Positions 1-140 of a DNA stretch of 53,371 bases are shown here, piece after piece (positions within the stretch are counted from its first letter, which is position 1; the number at the start of each line of letters is the position of its first letter). Origin of the DNA: Bacteroidota bacterium (GTDB lineage: Bacteria; Bacteroidota; JABWAT01); NCBI GenBank assembly GCA_017303995.1, contig JAFLBE010000030.1, positions 1-53,371 on the forward strand, written 5' to 3'. The notes under the pieces are model-generated. The model made no database searches. It saw only the letters and a list, made by a program, of their open reading frames with translations, and was not told the origin of the DNA. A program made the position numbers and the translations under genes.

Positions 1-24
1 GTCCGGTTTTGTATTCTTGTCCAT
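1..24 (-). CDS. Possible 5' end of a divergent minus-strand gene (partial)
   Basis: On the minus strand an ATG lies at 24-22 and eight codons (MDKNTKPD) remain open to the window edge. An AGGAG Shine-Dalgarno sequence (plus-strand complement at 32-36) sits seven bases upstream, which is the only positive evidence. The upstream DNA also folds as a strong hairpin structure that fits the plus strand better, so this start may be fortuitous. Eight residues are too few to name a product. Confidence 0.3.
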
Positions 25-114
25 GACGGGGCTCCTAAATTTTTGTGAGAGAAAATTTAAAGGTAACAGAATTTGAATTTTGTTGCCTTCGGTGCCCCGT
101 CTCTTTTTTATTTT
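25..114 (+). ncRNA. Candidate structured RNA, three-way junction with intrinsic-terminator tail
   Basis: Three helices account for most of 25-101. P1 pairs 25-35 with 91-101 (GACGGGGCTCC with GGTGCCCCGTC, ten pairs and one U-U mismatch). P2 pairs 36-43 with 52-59 (TAAATTTT with AAAATTTA, perfect). P3 pairs 62-71 with 78-87 (ten pairs, two of them G-U). Junctions are 0, 2 and 3 nt. A T-rich tract (102-114) follows P1, as in an intrinsic terminator. The two G-U pairs would be A-C mismatches on the other strand, so the plus strand folds better. It is either a small RNA of about 85 nt or a leader element of the permease operon starting at 206. I recognise no known riboswitch or ribozyme core in it. 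Confidence 0.45.
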
Positions 115-124
115 AAACATAATA

Positions 125-140
125 CCCCGCGAAGGCGGGG
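125..140. repeat. Short GC hairpin, CCCCGC / GCGGGG
   Basis: A perfect 6-bp stem, CCCCGC at 125-130 and GCGGGG at 135-140, closes a GAAG loop in otherwise AT-rich leader DNA. Neither side is followed by a convincing T-run, so I do not call it a terminator. Its loop side CGAAGGC (130-136) is exactly complementary to GCCTTCG at 85-91, which could let it compete with helix P3/P1 of the upstream structured element. Confidence 0.5.

What the first reader, a model, noticed from the sequence alone, without database searches (positions are those of the whole stretch)
25..114. Three-way-junction RNA candidate in the leader of the LolC/E-type operon
P1 (25-35 with 91-101), P2 (36-43 with 52-59) and P3 (62-71 with 78-87) pair almost all of a 77-nt segment with junctions of 0, 2 and 3 nt, followed by a T-rich tract at 102-114. 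Two G-U pairs in P3 would become A-C mismatches on the other strand, and the T-tract is on the plus side, so the plus strand is favoured. It matches no riboswitch or ribozyme core I know. It could be a small RNA with its own terminator or a leader switching lipoprotein-export genes.
Basis: partly seen in the sequence, partly recalled or inferred. Interest (0 to 1): 0.7.

Follow-up and report, generated by a model that had tools for sequence, protein, structure and literature searches.

The report
Transposase leader hairpin, IS1111-type element
The folded segment is not a switch for the neighbouring lipoprotein-export genes; it is the left end of a jumping gene (an RNA-guided IS110/IS1111-type element), where a hairpin preserved by matched mutations across distant relatives hides the start signal of the element's own transposase gene, probably to keep jumping rare.

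Summary
The window starts inside an insertion sequence lying between lysS and lolC. On the minus strand an IS110-family transposase begins at ATG 24-22; the finding is its 5' leader. The element is IS1111-like: subterminal inverted repeats, and a long 3' non-coding region whose guide sequences match its own flanks, so the guide RNA is at the other end. In 68 non-redundant relatives, a helix whose 3' arm abuts the transposase ATG (often holding the Shine-Dalgarno or the AUG) scores 22.0 against 15.2 in shuffles. It shows both-sided compensatory changes (0/500 shuffles in two subgroups), and the start region is less accessible than in 65 control genes (p=2e-5). The interior three-way junction is not conserved. 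Best reading: a leader hairpin repressing transposase translation, like the experimentally studied ISPpu9 leader (PMC8450116). Two weaker signals, antisense-strand G-U bias and promoter-like motifs in the first codons, fit an Asr9-like antisense RNA on the plus strand, so "small RNA with its own terminator" stays possible. New variant of a known kind.

The parts
1..24 (-). First 8 codons of the IS110-family transposase (MDKNTKPD...), ATG at 24-22; gene runs off the contig and continues on C57 (L006:104-1162)
   Evidence: ORF and identical 127-base overlap; PF01548, PF02371, NF033542
32..36 (-). Shine-Dalgarno-like AGGAG, 7 nt before the ATG; GGAG lies in the P1 3' arm
   Evidence: sequence; fold
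25..101 (-). Transposase mRNA leader structure: P1 25-35/91-101, P2 36-43/52-59, P3 about 60-71/78-89 (two A-C mismatches on this strand)
   Evidence: folds; family-wide anchored helix; covariation in relatives
102..114 (+). T-rich tract after P1 on the plus strand (A-rich spacer on the transposase strand); possible antisense terminator tail
   Evidence: sequence; A-rich spacer recurs in 19 of 46 relatives
112..121 (-). Left subterminal inverted repeat TATGTTTAAA (9/10 with the right-end TATGTTAAAA); also resembles a Bacteroidota -7 box TAnnTTTG
   Evidence: comparison of left and right ends
122..128 (-). Left terminal extension GGGGTAT; the exact IS edge is ambiguous within the G run (125-128)
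   Evidence: divergence of copies after this point
125..140 (.). REP-like palindrome CCCCGCGAAGGCGGGG that the element interrupted (left target)
   Evidence: sequence; matched by the guide in the copy's own 3' non-coding region
12..19 (+). Candidate antisense -7 box TATTCTTG (5 of 6 to TAnnTTTG), 5 nt before the ATG complement; weak alone
   Evidence: p 0.29 for this gene alone; family-level signal suggestive

Best explanation
Window 1 to about 128 is the left end of an IS1111-type (IS110 family) insertion sequence placed between lysS and lolC. Read on the minus strand, 101-25 is the 5' leader of its transposase mRNA. The outer helix P1 pairs the start of the leader with the Shine-Dalgarno region and the bases right up to the AUG, burying the ribosome-binding site so that little transposase is made. 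Shown here: the gene, the element's anatomy, the helix, its conservation through compensatory change in relatives, and a predicted loss of accessibility at the start site. Inferred: that the leader is transcribed with the gene (for example from a promoter formed when the two ends join in the circular intermediate, as reported for ISEc11) and that the helix lowers translation in the cell.
For: Transposase start at 24 on the minus strand with AGGAG in the P1 arm. Helix anchored at the transposase ATG in 68 non-redundant relatives: mean score 22.0 vs 15.2 shuffled, 42 individually p<=0.05. Compensatory changes: A3 28 cells changed on both sides, 0/500 shuffles, score 0.210 vs at most 0.071 when slid; A2 6 of 13 pairs changed on both sides, 0/500. 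Start region -12..-5 unpaired 0.32 vs 0.48 in 65 control genes, p 2e-5. SD or AUG in the 3' arm in 31 of 46. Same layout by eye in plasmid elements of Marinobacter, Cupriavidus and Enterobacter. Experimental precedent in ISPpu9, where weakening the 5'-UTR structure raised translation 26-fold (PMC8450116).
Against: The helix is more stable on the antisense strand in 52 of 68 leaders, and A-C mismatches on the mRNA strand outnumber G-U 39 to 11, which a purely sense-strand function does not predict. About a third of the relatives show no individually strong helix. No expression data.
Confidence: 0.75

Rival explanations
1. The structure is selected mainly as a plus-strand antisense RNA (Asr9-like), started from a promoter in the first codons of the transposase and ended at the P1/T-tract, regulating the transposase by pairing with its leader. 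It can coexist with the best explanation.
For: Antisense strand folds better in 52 of 68; G-U on the antisense strand 39 vs 11; A-rich spacer giving a U-tract in 19 of 46; promoter-like boxes in the first 25 codons above a synonymous null, z 8.8; Asr9 precedent with its promoter reaching into the first eight tnp codons (PMC8450116).
Against: Permuted motifs also score high; the true two-box motif ranks 6 of 120. Strand bias rests on few independent clusters, 8 vs 2 with 18 ties. The Proteobacterial examples have no U-tract. No RNA data. Large enclosed loop is unusual for a terminator, and the short-loop scan finds none on the plus strand.
Confidence: 0.35
2. The hairpin protects only against outside transcription: genuine transposase transcripts start inside the leader and lack the P1 5' arm, whereas read-through transcripts from neighbouring genes carry the whole hairpin and are not translated (IS10/IS50-like logic, from general knowledge).
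For: P1 5' arm lies close to the left end; the leader is short; known in other IS families (general knowledge; IS200 described in PMC3196728).
Against: The promoter-like box in the left repeat lies upstream of the 5' arm (about 12 nt in this element), so a junction transcript should include the whole helix.
Confidence: 0.2
3. It is the guide RNA (bridge RNA/seekRNA) of the element.
For: IS110-group elements carry the guide RNA upstream of the transposase (PMC11187229, PMC11208160).
Against: Guide parts that match this element's own left and right flanks lie in the 236-nt region after the transposase and face each other in a predicted internal loop; the left leader has no such loops.
Confidence: 0.03
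4. Leader or riboswitch of the LolC/E operon, as first proposed.
For: It lies about 90 bp upstream of lolC on the plus strand.
Against: Inside an IS; three relatives have lysS directly before lolC, no match to this left end and no relative of the transposase. No Rfam match in the window.
Confidence: 0.02
5. A DNA feature: a cruciform or recombinase-binding palindrome at the left end.
For: Inverted repeats lie near the end of the element.
Against: The helix is anchored to the transposase start codon, not to the element end, and its sequence differs between relatives; A-C/G-U asymmetry between strands is not expected for DNA.
Confidence: 0.05

Closest known systems
ISPpu9 of Pseudomonas putida KT2440: RBS-burying tnp 5'-UTR plus Asr9 antisense RNA (PMC8450116)
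   Same: IS110-family element in REP sequences; tnp 5'-UTR predicted to bury the ribosome-binding site; antisense promoter at the first tnp codons (shown there, only suggested here); a second RNA downstream of tnp
   Different: 244-nt leader and ~180-nt Asr9 there against a 104-nt left end here; translation effect measured there, not here; described as lacking clear inverted repeats; conservation beyond P. putida not analysed there; sequence homology not tested here
IS1111 group of the IS110 family (seekRNA / bridge RNA elements; PMC11187229, PMC11208160)
   Same: DEDD transposase, subterminal inverted repeats, long 3' non-coding region with target-matching guides in the described order
   Different: The passages of these papers that I read describe guide RNA and ends, not a leader helix over the transposase start
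IS200 tnpA leader stem-loop (as described in PMC3196728)
   Same: Stem-loop over the transposase ribosome-binding site
   Different: Unrelated transposase family; different leader
ISCaa14 (IS110 family) of Amoebophilus asiaticus (PMC3196728)
   Same: IS110-family element of a Bacteroidota-related host with a stable hairpin predicted in the first 50 bp, suggested to limit expression
   Different: One line, data not shown, no conservation or covariation

Membership tests
IS1111 group of the IS110 family | DEDD transposase with IS110-type domains | tested here: met
   PF01548 1.7e-14, PF02371 1e-21, NF033542 9.4e-63
IS1111 group of the IS110 family | Subterminal inverted repeats, usually 11-13 bp (7-17 bp) | tested here: met
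   9 of 10 bases, TATGTTTAAA/TATGTTAAAA; at the short end of the range
IS1111 group of the IS110 family | Longer non-coding region downstream of the transposase | tested here: met
   about 236 nt after the gene, about 104 nt before it
IS1111 group of the IS110 family | Terminal extensions of 7 bp left and 3 bp right | tested here: inconclusive
   compatible, but the edge is ambiguous within a G run
IS1111 group of the IS110 family | Guide RNA with top-strand complement before bottom-strand match | tested here: met
   TGTCATCCC (9/9 complement of right flank) precedes copy-specific stretch matching own left flank 8/9 and 6/9, 3/9 when swapped
IS1111 group of the IS110 family | Circular intermediate and target-specific insertion | not testable with these tools
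   two copies both in REP-like palindromes, no experiment
ISPpu9-type transposase control | tnp 5'-UTR structure that buries the ribosome-binding site | tested here: met
   predicted fold, conservation and accessibility; prediction only
ISPpu9-type transposase control | Antisense RNA from a promoter reaching into the first tnp codons | tested here: inconclusive
   motif signal z 8.8 but rank 6 of 120 among permuted motifs; no RNA data
ISPpu9-type transposase control | Antisense RNA raises tnp translation; downstream RNA counters it | not testable with these tools
   needs fusions and Northern blots
Known RNA families (Rfam 15), riboswitches included | Covariance-model match | tested here: not met
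   none in the window; only chance-level matches elsewhere in element copies

The most novel reading that the evidence does not exclude
IS1111-type elements generally carry a compact two-sided control unit at their left end: a leader helix that hides SD/AUG and, on the other strand, an antisense RNA whose promoter is written into the first codons of the transposase and whose 3' end is formed by the same helix.
Probability: 0.3. Interest if true: 0.6.

Novelty: new variant of a known kind. Interest (0 to 1): 0.45.

Why it matters
IS110/IS1111 recombinases are RNA-guided and of current interest as genome-writing tools, yet I found a detailed account of how transposase expression is held down for only one element (ISPpu9). 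A leader helix preserved by compensatory change in elements of Bacteroidota, Ignavibacteria, Calditrichota and others, with the same layout seen by eye in some Proteobacterial plasmid elements, suggests a general brake on these transposases. It is directly testable: break and restore P1.

Tried and rejected
lolC leader or riboswitch: rejected (IS insertion; Rfam negative). Guide RNA in the left end: rejected (guides are at the right end). Three-way junction as the conserved unit: rejected. Close relatives by single-protein pattern scans of genomes and viral contigs: none; an alignment query gave 80 loci. Short-loop terminator scan: nothing on the plus strand, as expected for a large enclosed loop. 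Antisense promoter: strong against a synonymous null but weakened by permuted motifs, so kept only as a rival. A first leader extraction used the wrong strand for some loci and was redone.

Full report
Observation. The three helices and the T-tract are present at the stated coordinates. The plus strand of 25-114 folds at -37.6 kcal/mol, z -6.81, with none of 200 shuffles as good. The minus strand also folds, at -26.5, z -5.04. No tRNA or Rfam family matches in the window.

Context. The window is contig C52 of the genome, and its first 127 bases are repeated: identical at the start of contig C57 (reverse strand) and 97% identical in C111. On the minus strand of the window an ATG at 24-22 opens MDKNTKPD..., which continues on C57 as a transposase of 352 aa with PF01548, PF02371 and NF033542. 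So the finding lies between the left end of an insertion sequence and its transposase start codon. In three relatives (two of the same genus, one of the same family) lysS lies directly upstream of lolC in the same direction. The flanks of C57 and of the window align to that one interval in the closest relative, and none of the three has a relative of the transposase at E <= 1e-40. The window copy therefore split lysS from lolC, with the transposase facing against them. The join of C52 and C57 is inferred from the overlap and from the guide match below.

What element it is. The two copies share subterminal inverted repeats (TATGTTTAAA left, TATGTTAAAA right, read inward) and a non-coding region of about 236 nt after the transposase. 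That region holds TGTCATCCC, the reverse complement of the right flank GGGATGACA, followed by a stretch that differs between copies and matches each copy's own left flank: 8/9 and 6/9, against 3/9 when swapped (the register was chosen by eye). In the predicted fold the two guide parts face each other in an internal loop. This order and place are those described for IS1111-type elements (PMC11187229; PMC11208160). The guide RNA is thus at the right end and is not the finding.

Conservation. Relatives at about 28-44% identity were collected from the same phylum and from named genomes. In 68 non-redundant leaders the best helix with a 3' arm ending between -14 and +4 of the ATG scores 22.0 on average against 15.2 in shuffled leaders; 42 are individually at p <= 0.05. 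Two flavours occur. In one the SD is paired, e.g. GGCATCCTTTCTT/AAGAAAGGATGCC (L082). In the other the AUG itself is paired, e.g. GCATAAGTTTG/CAAACTTATGC (L056). On 20 leaders of the second kind, 28 cells are changed on both sides, reached by 0 of 500 shuffles, covariation score 0.210 against at most 0.071 when slid. On 8 leaders of the first kind, 6 of 13 pairs are changed on both sides, again 0 of 500. Predicted accessibility at -12..-5 is 0.32 against 0.48 at 65 other ORF starts in the same loci (p 2e-5), while +3..+24 is more open. Several plasmid elements of Proteobacteria show the same layout by eye, e.g. GACCTGCCCGTCCTCAA/TTGAGGAGGGCAGGTC directly before ATG in Marinobacter. The interior is not conserved: 37 of 46 leaders fold as one hairpin and 9 as two. 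The window element's own P1 belongs to this family of helices (score 25.0, 0/60 shuffles), but its exact base pairs have no close relatives in which to test covariation: the nearest transposase outside this genome is about 41-44% identical.

Strand. Inside the anchored helices A-C mismatches on the mRNA strand (G-U on the other strand) outnumber G-U 39 to 11, with shuffles giving 1.17 to 1 (p 5e-4, not corrected for relatedness; 8 protein clusters against 2, 18 ties). The antisense strand folds better in 52 of 68 leaders. The first codons of the transposases read, on the antisense strand, as Bacteroidota-type promoter boxes more than synonymous codons would give (z 8.8), but permuted motifs are also raised and the true one ranks 6 of 120. 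These signals fit an antisense RNA and are not explained by a leader that acts only in the sense mRNA.

Mechanism and known systems. ISPpu9 of Pseudomonas putida, also an IS110-family element in REP sequences, has a tnp 5'-UTR that buries the ribosome-binding site, an antisense RNA Asr9 whose promoter reaches into the first eight codons, and a second RNA downstream; weakening the structure raised translation 26-fold (PMC8450116). Hairpins in the first 50 bp of an IS110 element of Amoebophilus were mentioned without data (PMC3196728). I therefore propose that P1 is a translational brake on the transposase. Shown: structure, conservation, predicted inaccessibility. Inferred: transcription of the leader and effect in the cell. 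An Asr9-like antisense RNA is a possible second layer. What is added here is covariation evidence that such a helix is a general and compact feature of IS1111-type leaders.

Limits. There are no RNA data. Relatives are unevenly sampled (one protein cluster holds 26 of 68), so shuffle counts are not probabilities. Helix search and thresholds were chosen during the analysis. Homology to ISPpu9 at sequence level was not tested. The literature held here is partial, so an earlier description of this leader helix in a subscription journal cannot be excluded.

Noticed in passing
L006 1163-1398 and L005 7345-7585 (right ends of the two copies): The two copies in one genome carry differently programmed target guides (TTCGCGAGG vs AGTTCCAGG), each fitting its own left flank better: natural retargeting within one genome, both into REP-like palindromes.
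   Followed up: partly
window 125-140; L005 around 6170 (reverse strand): Both insertions interrupt REP-like palindromes (CCCCGCGAAGGCGGGG; CCCGGACTTGATCCGGG) at the same point, before GGATGACA.
   Followed up: partly
window 112-121 and homologous left ends: The left subterminal repeat TATGTTTA/G of many relatives matches the Bacteroidota -7 promoter consensus TAnnTTTG, so joining of the ends in the circle could create a transposase promoter.
   Followed up: no
L010 (G000:C54:43021-43452): A distant second IS110-like transposase (28% identity over 146 aa) in the same genome.
   Followed up: no
L138, about 1230-1430 of its reverse complement: In the closest relative without the IS, the lysS-lolC gap holds a tandem-like repeat of about 36 nt (CCCTGTTGTTCTGGACACTGAGTCCCGAGAATCGG...).
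   Followed up: no
L027, L026 (Ignavibacteria-like loci): A more distant transposase subgroup shares the SD-burying helix (GGAGATCTCAT, GAGGACTCA before ATG) although the protein is only 28-31% identical.
   Followed up: partly
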